From contig NZ_JAAHBQ010000008.1 in NCBI RefSeq assembly GCF_020144665.1, forward strand, positions 1-64,000: a DNA stretch of 64,000 nucleotides, written 5' to 3'. Below are positions 1 through 59,540 of the stretch, one piece after another; position 1 is the stretch's first letter; the number at the start of each line of letters is the position of its first letter. Source of the DNA: Oscillatoria salina IIICB1 (GTDB lineage: Bacteria > Cyanobacteriota > Cyanobacteriia > Cyanobacteriales > SIO1D9). The notes beneath the pieces were generated by a model. The model worked only from the letters and a program-made list of their open reading frames with translations, ran no database searches and was not told the DNA's origin. Position numbers and translations under genes: made by a program.

Positions 1-115
1 CTACCACTCCCCGATAAACTACAGTGCGTTTACCCAGGTAAAGTTCCTCTATTAAACGGTATTTACCTAACCGTTGATTTAAATGGATGACCTCTTGTGG
101 ATTATTTTCTTTCAT
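1..115 (-). CDS. Serine/threonine protein kinase N-terminus (partial, runs off left edge)
   Basis: An ATG at 115 opens a frame that is still open at base 1, giving 38 codons. The residues after the first 15 (GKYRLIEELYLGKRTVVYRG) match the start of a Hanks-type kinase domain, where the glycine-rich loop is replaced by an L-x-G-x-R-T-x-V-Y-R-G pattern. In cyanobacteria this N-terminus is typical of very large kinases that continue with an AAA ATPase, GAF and histidine kinase domains. That architecture is inferred from the family; only the N-lobe is visible here. The catalytic loop lies outside the window. Confidence 0.6.
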   Translation of the reverse strand, partial: MKENNPQEVIHLNQRLGKYRLIEELYLGKRTVVYRGVV

Positions 116-11518: not shown

Positions 11519-11671
11519 GGATTGGGTTCAGTTATCAGTTACCAGTTACCAGTTATCAGTTACCAGTTATCAGTTATCAGTTTATTCCTTTTGTCTCCCT
11601 TGTCTCCCTTGTCTTTCCCCTCCTCATTGTCTTCCCAATCCCAACTGTTCACTGGTAACTGATAACTGATC
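11519..11671. repeat. Heptanucleotide repeat array after icd
   Basis: Directly after the icd stop codon GGATTGGG leads into about seven tandem heptamers of AGTTATC and AGTTACC (11529-11581). A pyrimidine-rich stretch follows, then inverted copies (ACTGGTAACTGATAACTGAT, 11652-11671), so the two ends could pair. The 7-base unit resembles the short tandemly repeated repetitive (STRR) sequences described in cyanobacteria. Confidence 0.8.
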
Positions 11672-15883: not shown

Positions 15884-15979
15884 GGGATTAGGGATTGGGG
15901 ATTAGGGATTGGGGATTAGGGATTGGGGATTAGGGATTAGGGATTAGGGATTGGGGATTAGGGATTGGGGATTGGGAAT
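15884..15979. repeat. GGGATTA/GGGATTG heptamer array
   Basis: About thirteen head-to-tail 7-base units alternate between GGGATTA and GGGATTG. They lie upstream of the lptA-like gene and downstream of the DUF309 gene. The regular period of 7 and single-base variation at the last position mark an STRR-type array. Confidence 0.85.
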
Positions 15980-16015
15980 TAATTATTACTACTGATTCGC
16001 GTCGGAGTAAGATTG

Positions 16016-16181
16016 TTTCCAGTTATCAATGACCAGTTATCAGTGACCAGTTATCAGTGAATAGTGAACAGTTAGTAGTTATCAGTGAATAGTGAACAGT
16101 TAGCAGTTTACTCACCCAGTCCCCAGTCCCCAGTCCCCAGTCACCAGTCCCCAATCCCCAGTCCCCAGTCCCTTCCAGTCC
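16016..16181. repeat. Composite heptamer array: AGTTATC/AGTGACC type, then CCCCAGT (STRR1 type)
   Basis: The first part (16016-16106) carries degenerate AGTTATC, AGTGACC and AGTGAAT heptamers. The second (about 16114-16172) is CCCCAGT repeated with a few CACCAGT and CCCCAAT variants. CCCCAGT is the published STRR1 unit of heterocystous cyanobacteria. The array ends at the stop codon of the DUF309 gene. Confidence 0.85.
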
Positions 16182-21592: not shown

Positions 21593-22138
21593 TTAGCTAC
21601 ATCCGAGAGACTTACGAGTATCGACTCCAGTGGTAGGATTTACGCCAGAAGCAGTTTGGCAAAGCTTTTTTACTTCGATACGGTCTAAAATAGCATCGGT
21701 AAAATCAGCACCAGTAGCATCTACATTATTAAAAGTAGAGCGAAGGAGAATTGCTTCGGTAAAAATAGAATTGCGTAAATCAGCACCATCAAATTCTACT
21801 AAATAACCGATCCCGTTACCAAAATTAGCGCCGTTGAAATTAGCATTATGGAGGATACAAGTATTAAAAACCGCCCCTCGTAAGTCAGCATTGCTAAAAT
21901 CAGCACCAACTAATTTTACCTGAGTAAACTGTCCCTCGATTAAATTTTTACCAGCAAAGTCACTACCGCTAAGATCCTGGTTAACATAAGCATCAAGGGA
22001 AGAAGACGTAACCGCAGATGAACTAGCAGCGATCGCACTTGGAGAAAAGCATAGCAGAGCGATCGCCATTCCCCAAACTACTACTAGGGAAAAATACTTC
22101 TTGAATAAATTATCTAAGCCTTGAGACAGAAAAAGCAT
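21593..22138 (-). CDS. Exported pentapeptide-repeat protein (probably lumenal or periplasmic)
   Basis: 181 residues from the ATG at 22138; the longer frame begins with TTG at 22180. A signal peptide (hydrophobic core [13 protein letters not shown], cleavage near SAIAA-S) is followed by about 16 pentapeptide-type units, A(D/N)LXX, at roughly 55-150: [28 protein letters not shown] and so on. The C-terminus has two cysteines (in KKLCQT and LGCS) that could form a disulfide, as in known thylakoid-lumen pentapeptide proteins. It is divergent from the GH13 gene. Confidence 0.85.
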
Positions 22139-22203
22139 GGCGTAAAGATCGTTACTCTCTTTAATGGGGATAAATTGCAAATTAAGTAAGTCCGAACAAA
22201 TCG

Positions 22204-28520: not shown

Positions 28521-28648
28521 ACAGTTATCAGTTAGCAGTTACCAGTTAGCAGTTATCAGTTATCAGTTAGTGACTGGGGACTGGGGATTTCAGTTATCAG
28601 TTAACAGTTATTAGTTACCAGTTATCAGTTACCAGTTATCAGTTATCA
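28521..28648. repeat. AGTTATC/AGTTACC heptamer array upstream of aroA
   Basis: About fifteen heptamers of AGTTATC, AGTTACC and AGTTAGC type, broken once by TGACTGGGGACTGGGGATT. The array starts about 8 bases upstream of the aroA start codon, so the aroA leader or promoter must lie within or beyond it. Confidence 0.8.
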
Positions 28649-34372: not shown

Positions 34373-35290
34373 ATGACTGCAACAACGATTAATAATCCAG
34401 GTTTAGCTTCGCGCTTTGTTAACGGGATACTCGCGATTAAGCCTTTGGCAAGTTTTGCTAAGTACAAGGCACGTGAGATGATGATTAAACGGGCGGAAAA
34501 AATTGGCGTACCTTGGCGTGAAGAGGTACGAAAGTTACGCCAGCATGATTGGGATCGCGAATTTGCGGAGGTGGAAAATCCTCAGTTAGTTTATCCAGAA
34601 TACTATCTGCGATCGTTCCATGCTTACGATCGCGGTAATCTTAGTTGGGATGCTGCTTTAGAGGTGGAAGTTGCTGCTTATGCTGTCCATGCAGGTATTT
34701 GGCAAGATGCAGGGGCGAAGGGCGATCCGAGATTAAGACAAAGTTATCATAATTTGCTGAAAGAACAAATTCCTAGTCAACCGCAAGCTATTTTAGATCT
34801 TGGTTGTAGTGTGGGAATGAGTAGTTTTGCTTTGCAAGCAACTTATCCTAATAGTAAGGTGACGGGAATAGATTTATCGCCTTATTTTTTAGCTGTAGCT
34901 AATTATAAGAATAGACAGCGACAGCAAAATATTAGTTGGTTACACGCTGCGGCGGAAAATACAGGTTTACCCGATCGATCTTTTGATTTAGTTTCGGCAT
35001 TTTTGCTTTTTCATGAGTTACCTCAAAGTGCAGCAACCGAAATTTTAGCGGAAGCACGGCGTTTGTTGCGTCCGGGCGGTTATTTGGGAATTATGGAAAT
35101 GAATCCGCGATCGCAGGTTTATGCCCAAATGCCTCCTTATATCTTAACTTTGCTTAAGAGTACGGAGCCTTATCTGGATCAGTATTTTAGCTTGGATTTG
35201 GCTGACGCGATCGCTGATGCAGGTTTTGAACCACCAACTATTATTTCTAATAGTCCCCGCCATCGCACTGTGATTGCTAAAGTGAAATAA
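34373..35290 (+). CDS. Class I SAM-dependent methyltransferase
   Basis: 305 residues. A helical N-terminal part of about 130 residues precedes a Rossmann-type methyltransferase domain: motif I ILDLGCSVGMSSFAL, VTGIDLSPYFLAVA (motif II acidic end), and FDLVSAFLLFHELP followed by EARRLLRPGGYLGIMEMNP. The HELP and RLLRPGG elements are typical of small-molecule methyltransferases. Substrate unknown. The gene is divergent from the M1 aminopeptidase, 109 bases away. Confidence 0.88.
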   Translation: MTATTINNPGLASRFVNGILAIKPLASFAKYKAREMMIKRAEKIGVPWREEVRKLRQHDWDREFAEVENPQLVYPEYYLRSFHAYDRGNLSWDAALEVEVAAYAVHAGIWQDAGAKGDPRLRQSYHNLLKEQIPSQPQAILDLGCSVGMSSFALQATYPNSKVTGIDLSPYFLAVANYKNRQRQQNISWLHAAAENTGLPDRSFDLVSAFLLFHELPQSAATEILAEARRLLRPGGYLGIMEMNPRSQVYAQMPPYILTLLKSTEPYLDQYFSLDLADAIADAGFEPPTIISNSPRHRTVIAKVK

Positions 35291-35686
35291 ATTACCTAAA
35301 AAAACTACAAAAGTCTGCGGCACTTTTGTAGTTCGATCCTCGAGCCGATATCCCTTCAAAAAATCGTGGTATTTTTGGTAAAAAACGTTGTCAATCAGCC
35401 GCACTGAGATCCTCTTCATCGCTATTCAAAAAGAATTTTTATTTCAATTATTACAGACGATTATCAACTTCAGCGAGATCGTACCCTCATTTATCAGCTA
35501 TCAGTAGATATTGGAGACAAAAAGCAATTAGTGAATCAACTGTGTTAACTGTTCGGGTGGTAACTGTTCGCTGAAACCCTAGTCCAAGGGTTCCCAAAGA
35601 AACATTCGCGAAAATTATGTGCCAAGCTTAACATTAAAAGTGTAGCTACCGAACATAGAATCTATTTACAACAGGAGCGAAGTCCA
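35291..35686. other. Intergenic region with orphan terminator and possible small RNA
   Basis: 396 bases between the methyltransferase and the first tandem kinase. It contains a minus-strand terminator (next entry) with no minus-strand protein gene in front of it, and a TTGACA box 56 bases further upstream. The right part holds degenerate AGTTATC-like repeats and TAACTGTTCG duplications (35540-35570). The kinase SD (AGGAGCG) lies near 35672. Confidence 0.5.
35298..35333 (-). terminator. Strong minus-strand intrinsic terminator without an obvious gene
   Basis: A perfect 12-bp stem, AACTACAAAAGT (35303-35314) with ACTTTTGTAGTT (35322-35333), closes a 7-base loop. Read leftward it is followed by six T residues. 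Read rightward there is no T-run, so it fits poorly as a terminator of the methyltransferase. It may end a short RNA transcribed from the TTGACA-like box at 35389-35394 with TACCAC 17 bases on. The RNA itself is inference. Confidence 0.55.
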
Positions 35687-37300
35687 ATGAGCAACTATCC
35701 AAATTTTGGCAATCCCAGATATCAAATCATCCGAGAATTGGGAAGAAACCGGGAAGGAGGACGAATTACCTATCTTGCTACTGGTGAAACTGAAAAACAA
35801 ATGGTCGCCTTGAAACAGTTTCGCTTTGCTCAAGAGGATTCTAACTGGGAAGGTTACAAAACTTATCAACGCGAACTGCAACTGCTGCAAGAATTAGATT
35901 GTCCGGGTATTCCTCGCTATGTGGATGCTTTTGAGACTCCAGAAGGTTTTTCTTTGGTACAAGAATATATTCCCGCACCTTCTTTAGCTGAAAGACACAG
36001 TTTTAAACCCGATGAAATCAAACATATTGCTGTGTCAACCTTAGAAATTTTAGTGGATTTACAAAATCGCCTTCCTCCGGTTATTCATCGAGATATTAAA
36101 CCAGAAAATATTTTGCTTGACGAGCGCTTAAATGTTTATTTGGTTGATTTTGGTTTAGCTCGAATTGGTTCTCAAGATGTTGCTGCTAGTAGTATAGCGG
36201 CAGGTACGCCCGGCTTTATTGCTCCGGAACAGTTATTTAATCGTCCGCTAAGTTTGGCAACCGATCTATATAGTTTGGGTGCAACTTTATTTTGTTTGCT
36301 TGCTGGTACTCGTTCGGCAGATATTGGTAAGTTAATTGATGAGAATTATCGCTTTGATTTTCAGCTTCTCGATCCGAGATTAAATAAGTCTTTTGTCAAA
36401 TGGCTGAAGAAAATGTTAGAACCAGTTGTTCACAAGCGCTATCCTAATGCAGCTTCGGCTTTGGCAGCATTGAAACCTCTGGAGGTGATGAGTTCCCCAG
36501 TTAATTTAACTAATTGGAAATTAGCTGGTTTAGTTGTTGCTTTAGTCGGGATTAGTTTGGTTGGCAAATTAGAAAAGTTATCCCAACAACCAGTTCCTAC
36601 TTATACACCTCCTGTGAGAGAAACCGATCTAGATTTAGCTGGACAATTTTTCCAAGAAGGGGAAAGATTGAGCGCACAAGGTGCCTATCAAAGAGCTTTA
36701 ATTGCTTATGATGAAGCGATCGCGTTAAAGCCTAATTATGGGGAAGCATTTTCGAGTCGTTGTTGGGTGTTGCAACAAATGGAGCGTTATACTGAAGCAT
36801 TAGCAGCTTGCGATCGCGCGCTCTCGATTAATTCTGGTTCCAAACAAACTTGGAATCGACAAGCAGGTGCTTTAGCAGGTTTGGGTAGAAATCGCGAAGC
36901 GATCGCTACTTATACTCGCGCATTGCAAATCGATCCCGATTATTATTGGGCTTGGAATGACCTCGGAGCGATCTACAATCAGGAGGGACGCTACGCTGAA
37001 GCCCTAGCTGCGGCACAAAGAGCGACAGAACTCGATCCTGACACTTATAATGCTTGGAAGGTACGCGGTGAAGCTGAACTTGGTTTACAACGTTATTCAG
37101 CCGCACTCAATTCCTTTAAGTCAGCAATTAAAATAAATCCAGAGGAATATTGGAGTTGGTATGGGCAAGGGGTAGCATTAGAAAAAATGGGTGCGCGCGC
37201 GGACGCGATCGCCTCTTACAATCGAGCAATTACTCTTAATCCTGAGTTCTATTTAGCCATCGAGAAGAAAAGGCAATTAGTGGAGAAATTAGCACCATAA
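35687..37300 (+). CDS. Hanks-type Ser/Thr protein kinase with C-terminal TPR repeats
   Basis: 537 residues: kinase domain (about 12-270) with invariant Lys43 (VALKQF), catalytic Asp136 in HRDIKPEN and Asp154 in DFG. The glycine loop reads GRNREGGRITYLA. A transmembrane helix (about 276-293) follows, then about six TPR units (about 312-532, for example AYQRALIAYDEAIALKPNYGEA). The TPR part should lie outside the cytoplasm or bind partners. It is the first of three paralogous kinases in tandem, 53 bases before the next. AGGAGCG precedes the ATG. Confidence 0.95.
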   Translation: MSNYPNFGNPRYQIIRELGRNREGGRITYLATGETEKQMVALKQFRFAQEDSNWEGYKTYQRELQLLQELDCPGIPRYVDAFETPEGFSLVQEYIPAPSLAERHSFKPDEIKHIAVSTLEILVDLQNRLPPVIHRDIKPENILLDERLNVYLVDFGLARIGSQDVAASSIAAGTPGFIAPEQLFNRPLSLATDLYSLGATLFCLLAGTRSADIGKLIDENYRFDFQLLDPRLNKSFVKWLKKMLEPVVHKRYPNAASALAALKPLEVMSSPVNLTNWKLAGLVVALVGISLVGKLEKLSQQPVPTYTPPVRETDLDLAGQFFQEGERLSAQGAYQRALIAYDEAIALKPNYGEAFSSRCWVLQQMERYTEALAACDRALSINSGSKQTWNRQAGALAGLGRNREAIATYTRALQIDPDYYWAWNDLGAIYNQEGRYAEALAAAQRATELDPDTYNAWKVRGEAELGLQRYSAALNSFKSAIKINPEEYWSWYGQGVALEKMGARADAIASYNRAITLNPEFYLAIEKKRQLVEKLAP

Positions 37301-37353
37301 ATGCACGTTTTCATCCTTTTGTCAACAACAAAATTTCACTTCCAAACAGGCAA

Positions 37354-39021
37354 ATGAGTAACTATCCAGACATTTACAGCAGAGGCTATCAAATTGAAAG
37401 CAAGTTAGGGCATAATCGGGCAGGAGGTCGAGTTACTTACAAAGCGACGAATCTCAAAACGAAGCAAACCGTAGTCATCAAACAGTTTCAGTTTGCTCAA
37501 CCGGGGACTAGCTGGATGGATTACGAAGCTTATACCAGAGAAATCGAAGTTTTGATCTCGCTAGTCTCCCCTAATATTCCCCGTTACCTCGATTCCTTTG
37601 AAACCCCCACAGGTTTTTGTTTAGTTCAAGAATACAAACGAGCCTATTCACTTGCCCAACTGCGCCATTTTACTCCCCAAGAAATTAAAGAAATCGCTTT
37701 AGCAGTATTAGACGTTTTAGTTTATCTGCAATCAGTTTCTCCCCCCGTAATTCACCGCGATCTTAAACCAGAAAATATCCTGGTTGACCATTCTCAACCG
37801 CGAAATGTTTACTTGGTGGATTTCGGTTTTGCCCACCAAGGAAATCAAGATGTTGGTGTTAGCAGCGTGGTCAAAGGTACATTGGGATTTATGCCCCCGG
37901 AACAATTATTTAATCGGCAACTAAGCGAAGCCTCCGACTTATATAGCTTAGGTGTCACCTTAATTTGTCTCCTCACCAAAACCAAATCCAGCGAAGTTGG
38001 TAACTTAATTGACGAAGCCTATCGCTTTAAATTTCGCTCCCAACTACCAGAAATTAGCGGGCAATTTGTGCGTTGGTTAGAGAAAATGGTCGCACCCAAC
38101 CCCAAAAAGCGCTATCCCAATGCAGTTGCCGCCAAAGCCGCCTTAAAAAATATTCCCGTCACCGACAAAGGTTTACAACTACAACTAGGCGAGAAATTAG
38201 TTAAACAAATAAAAACAATGTCTGTAGCGATCGCCAAACCCGCAACCACCCTATGCTGGATTTTAACACTCAGCGCGATCGCCTCCTTCAACACCTATCG
38301 AACCCATTCCCCGCAACAAAAATTCACTTCTCACAGTCAAATTATCAATCCCCTCAGTCAATTACGCGACACTGGTAAATGTCCCGGTTGCTATCTACCA
38401 GAAGCCAATCTCGAAGGCGCAAACTTGCAAAATGCCGACTTAGAAGCCGCCTATCTCAGAAGAGTTAATTTCGAGGGTGCATACCTCCGAGGCGCAAACT
38501 TTCGCGATGCCTTTCTTAAAGGTGCTAACCTAGAACAAACTTACCTCCGCGCCGCCAACCTTAATAACGTTAAACTCGAAGGTGCGAACCTCCAAAACGC
38601 TAATTTAGGAGGAGTAAATATGCAATTTGCTAACTTAGTCAAAGCATATTTTAAAAGTGCTAACTTAGAGTTTGCCAACCTCAAAAGTGCCAACCTGAAA
38701 AAGGCTAACCTGGAGTTTGCTAACCTCAAAAGTGCTGACTTAACTAATGCTTATCTCGAAGATGCTTCTCTCGAAGGAGTTCAATTAGAAAACGCCCACT
38801 TAATCGGAGCAAAACTGAAAAATGCCCAGTTACATTCTGCTGACTTAGCAAATGCCGAACTTTCCGGCGCCAACTTAGAAAATGCCAATCTCGAAGGTGC
38901 TGATTTAGCTGGGGCTGACCTCGCTGGAGCAAATCTTAAAAATGCCAATCTTTGGAACGCTAATTTAGTCGGTGCCAAGCTTAAAGGTGCAATCCTTCCT
39001 GATGGAACAAAACATGAATAA
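37354..39021 (+). CDS. Hanks-type Ser/Thr protein kinase with C-terminal pentapeptide repeats (second of three)
   Basis: 555 residues: kinase domain with Lys43, Asp136 (HRDLKPEN) and Asp156 (DFGFA), a transmembrane helix (about 295-312), a CPGC motif (Cys343, Cys346), then about 38 A(N/D)LXX pentapeptide units to the end. The kinase domain is closely related to those of its neighbours, including the first seven residues (MSNYP shared with the first kinase). The right-handed quadrilateral helix of pentapeptides would be outside the membrane or a docking surface. SpkB-type kinases of Synechocystis have a similar pentapeptide tail. Confidence 0.95.
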   Translation: MSNYPDIYSRGYQIESKLGHNRAGGRVTYKATNLKTKQTVVIKQFQFAQPGTSWMDYEAYTREIEVLISLVSPNIPRYLDSFETPTGFCLVQEYKRAYSLAQLRHFTPQEIKEIALAVLDVLVYLQSVSPPVIHRDLKPENILVDHSQPRNVYLVDFGFAHQGNQDVGVSSVVKGTLGFMPPEQLFNRQLSEASDLYSLGVTLICLLTKTKSSEVGNLIDEAYRFKFRSQLPEISGQFVRWLEKMVAPNPKKRYPNAVAAKAALKNIPVTDKGLQLQLGEKLVKQIKTMSVAIAKPATTLCWILTLSAIASFNTYRTHSPQQKFTSHSQIINPLSQLRDTGKCPGCYLPEANLEGANLQNADLEAAYLRRVNFEGAYLRGANFRDAFLKGANLEQTYLRAANLNNVKLEGANLQNANLGGVNMQFANLVKAYFKSANLEFANLKSANLKKANLEFANLKSADLTNAYLEDASLEGVQLENAHLIGAKLKNAQLHSADLANAELSGANLENANLEGADLAGADLAGANLKNANLWNANLVGAKLKGAILPDGTKHE

Positions 39022-39115
39022 ACAGCGCTCGGTTATCAGTAACCAGTTAATAAACATCAACTCCTAAATTATAACCAATAATTCACTATTTCCTAGCCAA
39101 CAACAATTACTAACC

Positions 39116-40867
39116 ATGACACTAAATCGCGACTTTTCTAACTACAACTATCAAATTAGTAAAGAATTAGGCAGAAATCGACAAGGTGGACGAATTACTT
39201 ACCTAGGTAATAATCTCGACTCCGAACAACAAGTAGTAATTAAAGAATTTCGCTTCGCCGATCCTGATTCGAGTTGGGCAGGTTTTAAATCCTGCGAACG
39301 AGAAGTACAAATGCTGCAAAAGCTCGAACATCCAGGCATTCCTCGCTATCTGGATTGCTTTGAAACCGAAACAGGTTTTTGTATCGTTCAAGAATACAAA
39401 CAAGCGCCATCTCTAGCAGAAGTTGACCATTTTACTCCCGAAGAAATCAAGCAAATTGCTGTTGAAATTTTAGAAATTTTAGCTTATCTCCAAGCGCAAG
39501 AACCACCCATAATTCATCGCGATCTTAAACCAGAAAATATTTTAGTTAACTCTACAGAACCACTGGAAGTAACCTTAGTCGATTTTGGTTTTGCTACGGG
39601 CGAAGGCGATGTCACCAGCAGTAGCTTAGTCAAAGGAACAGTTGGCTTTATGCCACCCGAACAATTACTGAATCACGAACTTAGTTTAGCTTCAGATTTA
39701 TACAGTTTAGCGATAACTTTAATTTGCTTATTAACTCAAACAAAAACTAACCAAATCGGCAAATTAATTGACGAAAATTATCGCATCAACTTCAAACATC
39801 TTTGCCCAAATCTCAGCCGAAAGTTTCTTGACTGGCTAGAAAAAATGGCAGCACCAAATCCGAAAAATCGCTTTCCGAATGCAGCCGCAGCCCTGGAAGC
39901 TTTGCAACCAATAGCAGTATTTACACCTTCTTGGCGAGATAATTTAAAACAAAAACAACCTACTTTAGTATTCGGCTTAACTAGCATAACTGCTTTTGCT
40001 TTAGGATTAGGTATTACTGTCGCCAGTTTAGAGCAAAGTTATACAGAAATTGCCGCTCAACAAGAAGTTAGTTCCACCTCTCAAGAATTTAGCGAATATA
40101 CTAACTGTCCTGGTTGTAGTTTAGCAGGATATAATCTCCAAGGTGAAAACCTACGCGACGCTCAATTAGAAGGTGTAGATTTAGAAGGTGCTAATCTGAA
40201 AGGCGCCAATTTGAGTGGGGCAAATTTACGGGGTGCAAATCTCCGTGGAGCGCAACTCCAAGGTGCCGATCTAACTTATGCTCAGTTACATGGTGTAGAC
40301 TTAACTTATGCTCAGTTACAAGGAGCAAAATTGCAAAATTCTGACTTAGAAGGTGCTGATTTAAGTCACGCTCAATTACGGGGTGCTAATTTAGAAAAAG
40401 TTAGTTTACGCGATACGAAAATTAACTATGCGACTCAGTTAACAGATAAGTGGCGTTTGGTTTGGCGGATTGTGAATAATGGTGCTGAAGGTGTCGATCT
40501 AAAAAATGTTGACTTATCAGGTGCAAATCTAAATTTTGCTAATTTACGTTGGGCAAATTTAGAAGGTGTAAATTTAGAAGGTGCTTTTTTGCAAGGTGCT
40601 TTTTTAGAAGGCGCACAACTTCGCAATGCTAGTCTGTTTGCTGCTAATTTAGAAGGAACAAATCTCCAAGATGCTAATTTGGAAAATGTGAATTTGCGAG
40701 AAGCTTTTTTGCAGAATGCCGATCTAGAAAATGCTTATTTGTATCGGGCATTTATGCAAAATGCAATGTTATATGATGCTAATTTGCGAAGTGCTAATTT
40801 GCAGGATGCTGACATTAGTGATGCTAATTTCCAAGGTGCGAATTTGCAAGATACGATTATGCCATAG
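39116..40867 (+). CDS. Hanks-type Ser/Thr protein kinase with C-terminal pentapeptide repeats (third of three)
   Basis: 583 residues: Lys43 (VIKEF), Asp136 (HRDLKPEN), Asp156 (DFGFA), a transmembrane helix (about 283-304), CPGC at 331-334, then two blocks of pentapeptides (about 336-435 and 460-580). The blocks are split by a non-repeat insert around 440-458 (YATQLTDKWRLVWRIVNNGAEG) that recurs in many cyanobacterial pentapeptide proteins. Same strand as the two preceding kinases; gap 94 bases. Likely arose by duplication of the second kinase. Confidence 0.95.
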   Translation: MTLNRDFSNYNYQISKELGRNRQGGRITYLGNNLDSEQQVVIKEFRFADPDSSWAGFKSCEREVQMLQKLEHPGIPRYLDCFETETGFCIVQEYKQAPSLAEVDHFTPEEIKQIAVEILEILAYLQAQEPPIIHRDLKPENILVNSTEPLEVTLVDFGFATGEGDVTSSSLVKGTVGFMPPEQLLNHELSLASDLYSLAITLICLLTQTKTNQIGKLIDENYRINFKHLCPNLSRKFLDWLEKMAAPNPKNRFPNAAAALEALQPIAVFTPSWRDNLKQKQPTLVFGLTSITAFALGLGITVASLEQSYTEIAAQQEVSSTSQEFSEYTNCPGCSLAGYNLQGENLRDAQLEGVDLEGANLKGANLSGANLRGANLRGAQLQGADLTYAQLHGVDLTYAQLQGAKLQNSDLEGADLSHAQLRGANLEKVSLRDTKINYATQLTDKWRLVWRIVNNGAEGVDLKNVDLSGANLNFANLRWANLEGVNLEGAFLQGAFLEGAQLRNASLFAANLEGTNLQDANLENVNLREAFLQNADLENAYLYRAFMQNAMLYDANLRSANLQDADISDANFQGANLQDTIMP

Positions 40868-40913
40868 ATTGCTTGACTCGTAAACGGGCGGCTACACTAA
40901 TATAGACCATAGA

Positions 40914-40935
40914 TTAGCCCGCCTTTGCGGGCTAA
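40914..40935. terminator. Hairpin between convergent kinase and GH57 genes
   Basis: TTAGCCCGC (40914-40922) and GCGGGCTAA (40927-40935) form a perfect 9-bp GC-rich stem with a 4-base loop, between two convergent stop codons. There is no long T-run on either side, so termination would be weak or factor-assisted. The position suits a bidirectional terminator. Confidence 0.45.
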
Positions 40936-40967
40936 ATTGTCTAGAGATTTTCCGCTCGAATAAAGAA

Positions 40968-43214
40968 TTATGGTGCTTGTAAAGCGACCAATTTTTCTTC
41001 TGTCAAGCGCGATCGGAAAATACCATCATCAGCCAGAAGTAAAATCATCTGTAAACGAGAGTCAGGTTGGAGATGCAAATCCGCCCAAGGTACGGCTATT
41101 TCCAAACAGCGATCGACAGCAAAACTTGCTTGTGTCGAACAAGGATACCACTGAAAATGTTCTCCCGCTTCTTCTAGCCAAATTTTGCCTGTGAGGAAAT
41201 TAATTCCTAAATGATGGTGGAACAAATAATTAAGCGGTTCGCGATCGGGTAATTCTGCTAAAGGTGCAGGACTATTGAAACAAATAGCATCAGGATAATA
41301 CCACAGTAAATGTAACTCGCTCGGCAAATTTTGACCGAATTGTACGCCCGATTTGAAATCCAAACGCAGATAAAAATTCAGGTGATCTAAACCATAGAAA
41401 AGTCGTTGAATTTCGCTGCTGCGGTGCATAGTACCTCGCGCCCCACCAATTTCGAGCATTCCCGCTTTATCCCAATCTTGCTCATCGCCTTTACCATCAA
41501 TAATTGGATGAATGAAACTGCGAGGAATTTCTCTATTTTTATGTTCGTGGGGTTCTACTGGTTGATGTAACTGAGGTGGAATTGGTTCATTTAAAGCCTG
41601 ATAAATCGCAGATAAATGTTCGCGAAATAGCCGATCGAACATCGCATCATGGTTAGAAGAATGTCCTTCACCAAACCACCAAAACCAATCCGAACCTTCA
41701 GCCGCATCTAAAGCTGACCAAACTTCAGGATTATTTTCTTCAGTTGCTTCTGGATGTTTAGCTAATATTTGTCTGGCTTGGTAAAGTAAATCCCAAGCGC
41801 GATTTTTAACTGGATCGCCAATCCAAGTGGTAAAACTACCATCGACCCAAGAACCACTGTGTAACTTAGCTGTAGGAATTGTTTCAGTTGGGGGGAACTT
41901 TTCGAGAAATTCAGAGACAGTAACCAATTTGAAACAAGAGCGATCGCTCAATTGTTGATAAAGTGCTTCCAAGAAGGGTTGACCATCTTGTTGATAAAAT
42001 TCCCAACAATTTTCCCCATCGAGAGCGATCGTCACTAACCAAGGTTGTTCTAAACTGGTAGTCGAACCTTTTTGTCGTTCCTGAAGAGTAGAGGCGATCG
42101 CGTCTAAATGTCCGACCAAATCTCTTGCCGCTTCTAACGGTTTCATTGCACCATAGGTAAAACCAATCAAATCTGATAAGCGATGATCCCGAAACACAAT
42201 CGACAAATCTCCGTGAGGAGTTGACAAACGATAAGGACGATAAAGAAATTCCGGTTCCCGGACATTTCCTCGTTCATCGCGGTGGAAAAAGTGATGTAAA
42301 CTCCAACCTAATACCGCCTCATCCGAACAAATCCACTGAAAACCCTGTTTGGCAATATAAGGCAAAATCGCCGGACTAACCGACTGTTCGCTGGGCCACA
42401 ACCCACGGGGAATACAACCAAAGCGATCTTGATAATTTTCCCAAGCTTTGCGTAAATGGCGAGAAAGATCTTCTGCCCACTGAAAGCGTTGCTGTGGTAA
42501 ATTCATTTGCGGTACAGCTACCCGTCCCGCATTCGTATCCGCCAATAAAGGTAAAATTGGGTGCGTGTAAGGAGTCGTCGTTACCTCCAACTGACCCGCA
42601 TCTTGCATTTTGCGATGTTGAGGAATAATTCGACTGATAATTTGTCTTTGCTTCGAGTAGATACGCTGTCTATCCGCTAGAGTAAAATCTTTTCCTTGTT
42701 TTAACCAAGTAGCAATTTCTGGATCGTCCCAAAACAGAGGATCGATCCAAGCTAAATTATGCCATGCCAGCAAATCGCTGTAATCCTGGTTTGTCCAATT
42801 CGCCAAACACCAAGGTTCGCCTTTTTCCTGATGCTGTTGGTATAACTGCCTGTAGCGTGGATGGGGATCGATTAAAGTATGATGGTTAGCATCAAAAAAG
42901 TGTCTAACAATAAACTCTCGTTGTTGTTTGTCAAGTTGTTCGGTCGGAGTGAGAGTAACTGCTAGATAAGGGTCCATCGCTTCACCCGCAGCATAATCTT
43001 CTAACTGCAAAATTAGCGAAGGAACCAAATTTACCGTTTGATGCAGCTTAGGATACTTTTCCAGTAATAAGACCAAATCCAAGTAATCCTTTGTACCGTG
43101 TAGCCGCACCCAAGGCAAGCGATACTGTCCCATCGGAGATGAGATTGCTTCGCGAGACTTATAAAGTGGTTGATGCTGATGCCAGATAAAAGCAACGTAG
43201 AGAGGATAAGGCAT
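40968..43214 (-). CDS. Glycoside hydrolase family 57 enzyme
   Basis: 748 residues. The GH57 first conserved region is WHQHQP (His12, His14). GLWPSEQSVSP lies in the third region with the candidate nucleophile Glu, and WICSDEAVLGWS and TIALDGENCWEFY supply further regions, the latter with conserved Asp and Glu. The C-terminal 200 residues (from about SFIHPIIDGKGDEQDWDKAG) form a beta-rich domain like those binding carbohydrate. GH57 includes amylases, pullulanases and branching enzymes; this protein resembles the amylopullulanase-like cyanobacterial group. No signal peptide. Confidence 0.92.
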   Translation of the reverse strand: MPYPLYVAFIWHQHQPLYKSREAISSPMGQYRLPWVRLHGTKDYLDLVLLLEKYPKLHQTVNLVPSLILQLEDYAAGEAMDPYLAVTLTPTEQLDKQQREFIVRHFFDANHHTLIDPHPRYRQLYQQHQEKGEPWCLANWTNQDYSDLLAWHNLAWIDPLFWDDPEIATWLKQGKDFTLADRQRIYSKQRQIISRIIPQHRKMQDAGQLEVTTTPYTHPILPLLADTNAGRVAVPQMNLPQQRFQWAEDLSRHLRKAWENYQDRFGCIPRGLWPSEQSVSPAILPYIAKQGFQWICSDEAVLGWSLHHFFHRDERGNVREPEFLYRPYRLSTPHGDLSIVFRDHRLSDLIGFTYGAMKPLEAARDLVGHLDAIASTLQERQKGSTTSLEQPWLVTIALDGENCWEFYQQDGQPFLEALYQQLSDRSCFKLVTVSEFLEKFPPTETIPTAKLHSGSWVDGSFTTWIGDPVKNRAWDLLYQARQILAKHPEATEENNPEVWSALDAAEGSDWFWWFGEGHSSNHDAMFDRLFREHLSAIYQALNEPIPPQLHQPVEPHEHKNREIPRSFIHPIIDGKGDEQDWDKAGMLEIGGARGTMHRSSEIQRLFYGLDHLNFYLRLDFKSGVQFGQNLPSELHLLWYYPDAICFNSPAPLAELPDREPLNYLFHHHLGINFLTGKIWLEEAGEHFQWYPCSTQASFAVDRCLEIAVPWADLHLQPDSRLQMILLLADDGIFRSRLTEEKLVALQAP

Positions 43215-46554: not shown

Positions 46555-46650
46555 TTAGGGATTGGGGAATGGGGATTGGGTTCAGTTATCAGTAAACAGT
46601 AAACAGTTACCAGTTACCAGTTACCAGTTACCAGTGAACAGTTATTAGTT
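46555..46650. repeat. Heptamer array after bciB
   Basis: TTAGGGATTGGGG and GGATTGGG units directly after the bciB stop are followed by AGTTATC, AGTAAAC, AGTTACC (four in a row) and AGTGAAC heptamers. The array ends about 60 bases before the RimB-like gene and separates it from bciB. Confidence 0.8.
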
Positions 46651-59205: not shown

Positions 59206-59531
59206 AGCTATACTTAGGTTTGTTTCATTTTCTCTTAGAAATTGTTTAACCTAACCCCCCTACCCCCTTCCCTACGAGGGAAGGGGGAGTAATTAATTAA
59301 TAATTTTCAACTCAAAATAATTATCAAAATGCTCCCCTCTCCTTGTCGGAGAGGGGTTGGGGGAGAGGTAATAATCAAATGTTTACAATATTAGAAATTG
59401 TCTAACCTAACCCCCCTACCCTACGAGGGAAGGGGGAGTAATTAATTAATAATTTTCAACTCAAAATAATTATCAAAATGCTCCCCTCTCCTTGTCGGAG
59501 AGGGGTTGGGGGAGAGGTGATAATCAAATGT
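59206..59531. other. Non-coding region filled by a tandem duplication
   Basis: 326 bases between the converging lysyl-tRNA synthetase and membrane-protein genes. Almost all of it is two head-to-tail copies listed below. Each copy contains a GC-rich hairpin, CCCCTCTCC with GGAGAGGGG around TTGTC, which may serve as a terminator for both flanking genes. Confidence 0.7.
59235..59390. repeat. Tandem intergenic repeat, copy 1
   Basis: 156-base unit from TTAGAAATTG to GTTTACAATA. It differs from the copy at 59391-59540 by a CCCCCTTC-like 8-base insertion, one substitution near the start and one near the end. Contains TAATTAATTAATAATTTTC and two GC-rich hairpins. Confidence 0.92.
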
Positions 59532-59540
59532 TTACAATAA
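59391..59540. repeat. Tandem intergenic repeat, copy 2
   Basis: 150-base unit directly abutting copy 1. Its last 9 bases overlap the 3' end of the leftward membrane-protein gene, supplying its stop codon (TAA at 59534-59532) and the final codon. Confidence 0.92.

What the first reader, a model, noticed from the sequence alone, without database searches (positions are those of the whole stretch)
35687..40867. Tandem array of three paralogous membrane kinases that differ in their C-terminal repeat domains
Three adjacent genes share nearly colinear kinase domains (Lys43 and Asp136 at identical positions) and one membrane helix, but end in TPR, pentapeptide, and two-block pentapeptide tails. The second and third also share a CPGC motif directly between the helix and the pentapeptides. 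This looks like duplication with swapping of the sensing or docking module. The CxxC could bind metal or respond to redox. A further truncated kinase lies at the left edge of the window.
Basis: partly seen in the sequence, partly recalled or inferred. Interest (0 to 1): 0.5.

Follow-up and report, generated by a model that had tools for sequence, protein, structure and literature searches.

The report
Membrane kinases with swappable outer domains
Three neighbouring cyanobacterial genes encode protein kinases anchored in a membrane, each with a different repeat domain predicted to lie outside the cytoplasm, and the cysteine pair shared by two of them looks like a general cap of exported pentapeptide domains rather than a special sensor.

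Summary
In detail: three adjacent same-strand genes (gaps 53 and 94 bp) encode kinases with intact catalytic residues and one predicted membrane helix each, followed by TPRs (K1), CPGC + pentapeptides (K2) and CPGC + two pentapeptide blocks (K3). The left-edge kinase is real but of another type. All three belong to one sharply bounded cyanobacterial kinase subfamily that recurs in tandem arrays and carries varied C-terminal modules. They are not a local expansion of one gene: K2 sits in a supported clade of 15 pentapeptide kinases, the other 14 from other genomes, and holding K1+K2+K3 together is rejected (p-AU 0.003, 42 rows chosen by me). CPGC is not a private junction motif. It is CxxC[DN]L at the start of the first pentapeptide coil, kept by 19 of 21 pentapeptide kinases of the subfamily; among 109 other pentapeptide proteins it goes with a preceding hydrophobic export segment. 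Its middle residues vary and 17 of 19 exported parts hold no other cysteine, which fits a disulfide like that reported for Rfr23 better than a metal site. Cysteines of secreted YjbI can be reactive, so a redox role stays open. Likely role: receptor-like kinases with exchangeable extracytoplasmic domains; ligands and substrates unknown.

The parts
35687..37300 (+). K1: Ser/Thr kinase, one predicted membrane helix, TPR tail (537 aa)
36506..36562 (+). K1 predicted membrane helix (residues 274-292)
   Evidence: hydropathy
36650..37279 (+). K1 TPR region, residues about 322-531, predicted extracytoplasmic
   Evidence: stretches; side of membrane inferred
37354..39021 (+). K2: Ser/Thr kinase, one predicted membrane helix, CPGC cap, pentapeptide tail (555 aa)
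38224..38280 (+). K2 predicted membrane helix (residues 291-309)
   Evidence: hydropathy
38380..38391 (+). K2 CPGC, residues 343-346: N-terminal cap of the pentapeptide helix
38389..39000 (+). K2 pentapeptide beta-helix
39116..40867 (+). K3: Ser/Thr kinase, one predicted membrane helix, CPGC cap, two pentapeptide blocks (583 aa)
39965..40021 (+). K3 predicted membrane helix (residues 284-302)
   Evidence: hydropathy
40106..40117 (+). K3 CPGC, residues 331-334: N-terminal cap
40118..40420 (+). K3 pentapeptide block 1 (residues about 335-435)
40493..40852 (+). K3 pentapeptide block 2 (residues about 460-579)
2..115 (-). N-terminus of a multi-domain kinase cut by the contig end; not part of the array

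Best explanation
The three genes encode single-pass, receptor-like Ser/Thr kinases of one cyanobacterial subfamily. The kinase domain lies in the cytoplasm; the C-terminal module lies across the membrane (periplasm or thylakoid lumen) and works as a binding or sensing domain whose state is passed through the helix to the kinase. The subfamily varies this module widely (Ig-like plus several helices, pentapeptide, TPR, a small beta-type domain, short tails) and often sits in tandem arrays, so neighbouring kinases read different external partners. CPGC in K2 and K3 is the usual CxxC[DN]L cap of an exported pentapeptide helix, most likely a structural disulfide that closes the first coil. Shown by computation: family membership, module variety, recurrence of arrays, link of cap to export. 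Inferred: topology, disulfide state, signal flow.
For: Catalytic residues in place. Sharp family border: members score 312-507 bits and the next kinase 243; the lowest member scores 286 and the next full-length hit 222. Members in 63 of 386 genomes of the phylum, the window's own included (E <= 1e-84, my count). Adjacent members in 9 of 28 member-bearing genomes among 40 relatives, own included (my count). Module classes among the extracted members. Cap in 19 of 21 pentapeptide kinases. Cap against export in 109 other pentapeptide proteins: 28 hydrophobic+cap, 10 hydrophobic only, 3 cap only, 68 neither; Fisher p 1.8e-14. This genome's SpkB-like kinase L011 has pentapeptides but no hydrophobic segment and no cap. 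Middle residues of 50 caps vary (P in 12, G in 22); the following D/N (44 of 50) and L (47 of 50) hardly do. 17 of 19 exported parts have exactly two Cys. AlphaFold models put CPGC between the first two strands of the beta-helix after a short helix. PDB 2O6W (Rfr23) is the only pentapeptide chain among 24 matches whose best match covers both cap cysteines (two unrelated chains at E 0.5 and 0.9 cover them too); a Cys39-Cys42 disulfide bracket is reported for Rfr23 (PMC8145042, passages). Three lumenal pentapeptide proteins of Arabidopsis are listed with disulfides (PMC3842002, passages).
Against: No experiment. Topology rests on hydropathy and on the cap; positive charges lean to the kinase side only modestly (60 against 40 K+R over 20 proteins), and for K1 they lean the other way (1 against 2). 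K1 has no cap, so the side of its TPRs is inferred from the helix alone; TPRs are often cytoplasmic (recalled). Exported-looking pentapeptide proteins without a CxxC cap exist (L214 with C-x7-C; L112, 171 aa; window 21593-22180, minus strand). Cysteines of secreted YjbI were maleimide-reactive on cells (two at once, two more after EGTA), so such pairs need not be permanent disulfides (PMC12864828, section 14). The disulfides described for Rfr32 and At2g44920 in the review's passages sit at the C-terminal end, not at an N-terminal cap. The K2 model is poor between kinase and cap (pLDDT under 50 for residues 273-330).
Confidence: 0.7

Rival explanations
1. The CxxC is a reversible thiol switch: reduction or oxidation on the outer side (for example lumen redox state) alters the cap and so the kinase.
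For: CxxC is a redox-capable motif (recalled); YjbI cysteine pairs react with maleimide on cells; the pair is kept in 19 of 21 pentapeptide kinases.
Against: The same cap is on stand-alone exported pentapeptide proteins with no kinase; middle residues vary freely, unlike a tuned thioredoxin-like site; L146, in K2's clade, has lost both cysteines and L145 keeps one. In YjbI none of the cysteines was needed for zinc-induced turnover.
Confidence: 0.15
2. The CPGC pair binds a metal.
For: CxxC is a common half-site for zinc or iron (recalled).
Against: 17 of 19 exported parts hold only these two cysteines and the number of His ranges from 0 to 7, so no conserved second half-site is visible within one chain. 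A site shared by two chains is not excluded.
Confidence: 0.05
3. Recent local triplication of one gene with module swapping.
For: Adjacency, one strand and 57% identity; close tandem pairs exist elsewhere (the two of L133 are sisters, 100/97; the two of L139 lie in one three-row clade, 99).
Against: K2 lies in a 15-row clade with pentapeptide kinases of other genomes; K1+K2+K3 as one clade rejected, p-AU 0.0033.
Confidence: 0.08
4. The tails are cytoplasmic docking scaffolds held at the membrane face and the hydrophobic stretch is a membrane-associated or reentrant segment.
For: TPR and pentapeptide domains often act in the cytoplasm (recalled); charge bias across the segment is weak.
Against: Cap-export link; the SpkB-like kinase without a helix lacks the cap.
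Confidence: 0.12

Closest known systems
cbSTKII kinases of the cyanobacterial survey (PMC2176072, passages and section 7), including pentapeptide and TPR types
   Same: Kinase domain with TPR or pentapeptide additions; the paper says that some kinases with pentapeptides cluster and speaks of lateral recruitment of additional domains.
   Different: In section 7 and the passages I saw, no single membrane helix or CxxC cap is described for the pentapeptide type; section 7 names helices only for cbSTKI-TM (3 to 6).
SpkB (Slr1697) of Synechocystis
   Same: Kinase plus pentapeptides (PMC2176072).
   Different: The SpkB-like protein of this genome (L011; label by resemblance, recalled) has an N-terminal CxxCG, no membrane helix, no cap.
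Rfr23 (PDB 2O6W), pentapeptide protein of Cyanothece sp. 51142
   Different: No kinase mentioned; original structure paper not held, seen only through passages of the review.
YjbI, secreted pentapeptide protein of Caulobacter crescentus (PMC12864828: passages, section 14)
   Same: Secreted quadrilateral beta-helix with a conserved N-terminal cysteine pair; acts on envelope-stress signalling.
   Different: Has a second, C-terminal pair; cysteines reactive on cells; a separate secreted protein, not described as a kinase fusion in what I saw.
PASTA-type receptor kinases such as Stk1/PknB
   Same: Works like: cytoplasmic Ser/Thr kinase, one helix, exported sensor (recalled). The model's kinase part matches Stk1 (9ymt) and PknE (2h34) among many kinases.
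   Different: NCBIfam PknB_PASTA model far under its cut-off (65-75 bits of 450); no PASTA domain found.

Membership tests
Hanks-type Ser/Thr kinase (Pfam Pkinase) | Score over Pfam cut-off; catalytic Lys, HRD Asp, DFG Asp | tested here: met
   120-133 bits against 31.7; residues. Second glycine of the loop is Asn (N21, invariant in A2).
cbSTKII | Kinase plus at least one further known domain, no histidine kinase domain | tested here: met
SpkB type | N-terminal Cys motif, no membrane helix | tested here: not met
   K1-K3 lack an N-terminal CxxC and have a hydrophobic segment; definition partly recalled
PASTA receptor kinase | PASTA repeats outside the membrane | tested here: not met
Exported Cys-capped pentapeptide domain (Rfr23/YjbI-like) | CxxC at the start of the first coil after an export segment | tested here: met
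   K2, K3
Exported Cys-capped pentapeptide domain (Rfr23/YjbI-like) | Disulfide between the two Cys | not testable with these tools
   needs mass spectrometry or a structure
YjbI family | Second, C-terminal Cys pair | tested here: not met
   only two Cys after the helix in K2 and in K3

The most novel reading that the evidence does not exclude
Cyanobacteria hold a widespread, array-forming family of receptor-like kinases in which a redox-labile cysteine cap on an exported pentapeptide helix reports the thiol state of the lumen or periplasm to the cytoplasm, with sister kinases of the same array reading other external cues through TPR or Ig-like modules.
Probability: 0.1. Interest if true: 0.65.

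Novelty: new variant of a known kind. Interest (0 to 1): 0.33.

Why it matters
It gives a group of kinases, for which I found no study, a testable layout (kinase inside, exchangeable repeat domain outside) and offers CxxC[DN]L as a simple sequence mark that predicts on which side of a membrane a pentapeptide domain lies. The arrays are natural experiments in which related kinases carry different outer domains.

Tried and rejected
Left-edge kinase as a fourth member: rejected, it belongs to a cbSTKIII-like protein.

CPGC as a junction motif private to these kinases: rejected. CPGC as a metal site: disfavoured.

K3's interblock linker as a recurrent motif that I remembered: my pattern hit 1 of 146 sequences, K3 itself; no support.

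My TPR pattern found none even in K1, so 'TPR-like' for L091 and L172 is a hand label; Pfam gave no TPR for L091. The 29 members labelled 'other' are a mix that includes Ig-like ones missed by my pattern. 'betaC' (7) is a hand label too.

Promoter and terminator scan of 35200-41100: 9 promoter-like sites against 11.7 expected; 3 terminator-like sites, all on the minus strand, against 6.3 expected. Co-transcription is possible, not shown.

AU test on the 105-row set did not finish, and the pairs K2+K3 and K1+K3 gave no result. The 42-row set was chosen by me: of 24 pentapeptide, TPR and TPR-like rows I kept 21 (L180, L112 and L137 dropped for long branches or odd placing) and added 21 others, two of them outgroups. 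Before the 105-row tree I dropped 2 of 103 members (one frame-split, one partial copy) and added 4 outgroup rows.

Short profile A6 gave nothing at E 0.5 and only unrelated weak hits at E 10 in the PDB, so the residue-by-residue alignment of 2O6W with the cap was never printed. The cap was not tested in another phylum (one search failed).

Literature: I looked at the listings, at passages of PMC8145042, PMC2176072, PMC10651672, PMC3842002, PMC12864828 and PMC13297417, at section 7 of PMC2176072 and at section 14 of PMC12864828. None of this described single-pass pentapeptide kinases with a CxxC cap; subscription journals are mostly not held.

Full report
What is there. Three genes on the + strand, 35687-37300, 37354-39021 and 39116-40867, separated by 53 and 94 bp. 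Upstream lies a methyltransferase gene (396 bp away) and downstream, 100 bp away, a convergent glycoside hydrolase family 57 gene. The proteins K1, K2 and K3 begin with a kinase domain well over Pfam's cut-off, with Lys43, HRD Asp136 and DFG in place. K2 and K3 are each 57% identical to K1. Each has one hydrophobic segment after the kinase. K1 then carries TPRs, K2 one long pentapeptide array and K3 two arrays. In the models K2's array is a confident beta-helix (pLDDT about 90-98 from residue 341 on); K3's, folded without an alignment, is less sure and shows a break with a helix between the blocks. The genome has 52 Pkinase matches in all.

The family. A profile of five paralogs of this genome (K1-K3, L022 on contig C103, L023 on C52; A2) was run on 386 genomes of the phylum and on 40 relatives, the own genome included in both. 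Members stand apart from other kinases: the lowest member scores 312 bits and the next kinase 243; the lowest member scores 286 bits and the next full-length hit 222 (one split member, in G398, appears as two pieces of 230 and 192 bits). By my count of rows with E <= 1e-84, 63 of 386 genomes hold a member (at most 6 candidates per genome were scored there) and 28 of 40. In 9 of those 28 genomes two or more members are neighbours (my count), so arrays recur. From the loci fetched I extracted 103 different members. Their C-terminal modules differ: an Ig-like region followed by several membrane helices (36 or more), one helix plus pentapeptides (21), a small beta-type domain (7), very short tails (5), TPR-like (2), TPR (K1) and 29 left as 'other' (labels by my patterns and by eye).

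Descent. In a careful tree of 42 kinase domains K2 lies in a clade of 15 rows, all pentapeptide kinases, with 100/97 support; K1 and K3 are unresolved near the base. Two other pentapeptide kinases (L130, L149) lie in a different supported clade with short-tailed and TPR-like ones, so the pentapeptide module has been gained or lost more than once (3 changes; starred branches force 2). The 105-row quick tree agrees on K2 (SH-aLRT 96) and puts K1 in an 11-row group (93). Limits: the row set was my choice, the larger test did not finish, and the outgroup rows are long. So the array looks like a set of old paralogs, not a fresh triplication; how they came to lie side by side is not resolved.

The cysteine pair. 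In the alignment of 20 pentapeptide kinases Cys343, Cys346 and Leu348 of K2 are among the nearly invariant columns. Of 21 pentapeptide kinases 19 have the CxxC; L146 has lost both cysteines and L145 keeps one. The second Cys takes the first place of the first repeat, as in CxxC-[DN]-L. I then looked at pentapeptide proteins outside this kinase family: 32 of this genome, 74 from PF00805 loci and 3 met near the kinases. Of these 109, 28 have a preceding hydrophobic segment and the cap, 10 the segment only, 3 the cap only and 68 neither; Fisher p 1.8e-14 over all, 0.002 for this genome and 1.2e-12 for the PF00805 loci. The 3 cap-only proteins have N-termini of 40-42 residues that look like signal peptides by eye. 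Of the 10 segment-only ones, five are proteins of 865-1086 residues and two have three or four segments upstream; the other three look exported and lack the CxxC (L214 has C-x7-C). The sample favours strong repeat arrays and holds related sequences, so the p value overstates independence. Middle residues of 50 caps, kinases included, vary. After the helix, 17 of 19 capped kinases have exactly two cysteines, one has three and one four.

How it may work. In both models the CPGC spans the first two strands of the beta-helix just after a short helix. A profile of 16 exported caps matches Rfr23 (2O6W) over positions 11-30, chain residues 6-25, which puts the two cysteines at chain positions 15 and 18; an offset of 24 residues would make these the reported Cys39 and Cys42 (the offset is my inference and that alignment was not printed). 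The review reports that pair as a disulfide bracket (passages). I therefore read the cap as a structural disulfide on an exported domain, which in turn says that the tails of K2 and K3 lie outside the cytoplasm while the kinase, which needs ATP, lies inside. The same genome's SpkB-like kinase, with pentapeptides but no helix, has no such cap. For K1 the outside position of the TPRs rests on the helix alone, and its flanking charges do not favour it. Against a fixed disulfide, cysteines of secreted YjbI could be labelled with maleimide on cells, two at once and two more after EGTA (PMC12864828, section 14). A redox role is therefore open but unsupported.

What is known and what is not. Kinase-TPR and kinase-pentapeptide fusions in cyanobacteria were surveyed in 2007 (PMC2176072, passages and section 7), and cysteine pairs flanking a secreted pentapeptide helix are in print for YjbI. 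I saw no description of this single-pass subfamily or of the cap-export rule in the listings and passages, which cover open-licence papers only. I rate it a new variant of a known kind, of modest interest.

Noticed in passing
window 2-115, minus strand: N-terminus of a kinase cut off by the contig end, 89% identical over 38 residues to a 1837-aa Pkinase-AAA-GAF-HisKA-HATPase protein elsewhere in the genome.
   Followed up: yes
L268:2176-3396: Member of the same subfamily (Cyanobacteria bacterium UBA11153) in which a second kinase domain follows directly after the first in one reading frame, cut by the contig end.
   Followed up: partly
K1-K3 residue 21: The second glycine of the nucleotide loop is an asparagine (GxNxxGGR in K1-K3), invariant in the five paralogs of this genome and nearly so in 20 pentapeptide kinases.
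   Followed up: no
L088, L095 tails: Short-tailed members end in a hydrophobic segment plus a small tail with three cysteines, possibly the remnant of a capped domain.
   Followed up: no
window 21593-22180, minus strand: Small exported-looking pentapeptide protein without the CxxC cap, an exception to the rule.
   Followed up: no
window 59263-59539: Tandem duplication of a 149-base unit (about 1.9 copies, 98% matches).
   Followed up: no
window 11528-11582, 15884-16172, 28522-28648, 46583-46644: Several short arrays of 7-base units such as CAGTTAC and GGGATTA between ORFs.
   Followed up: no
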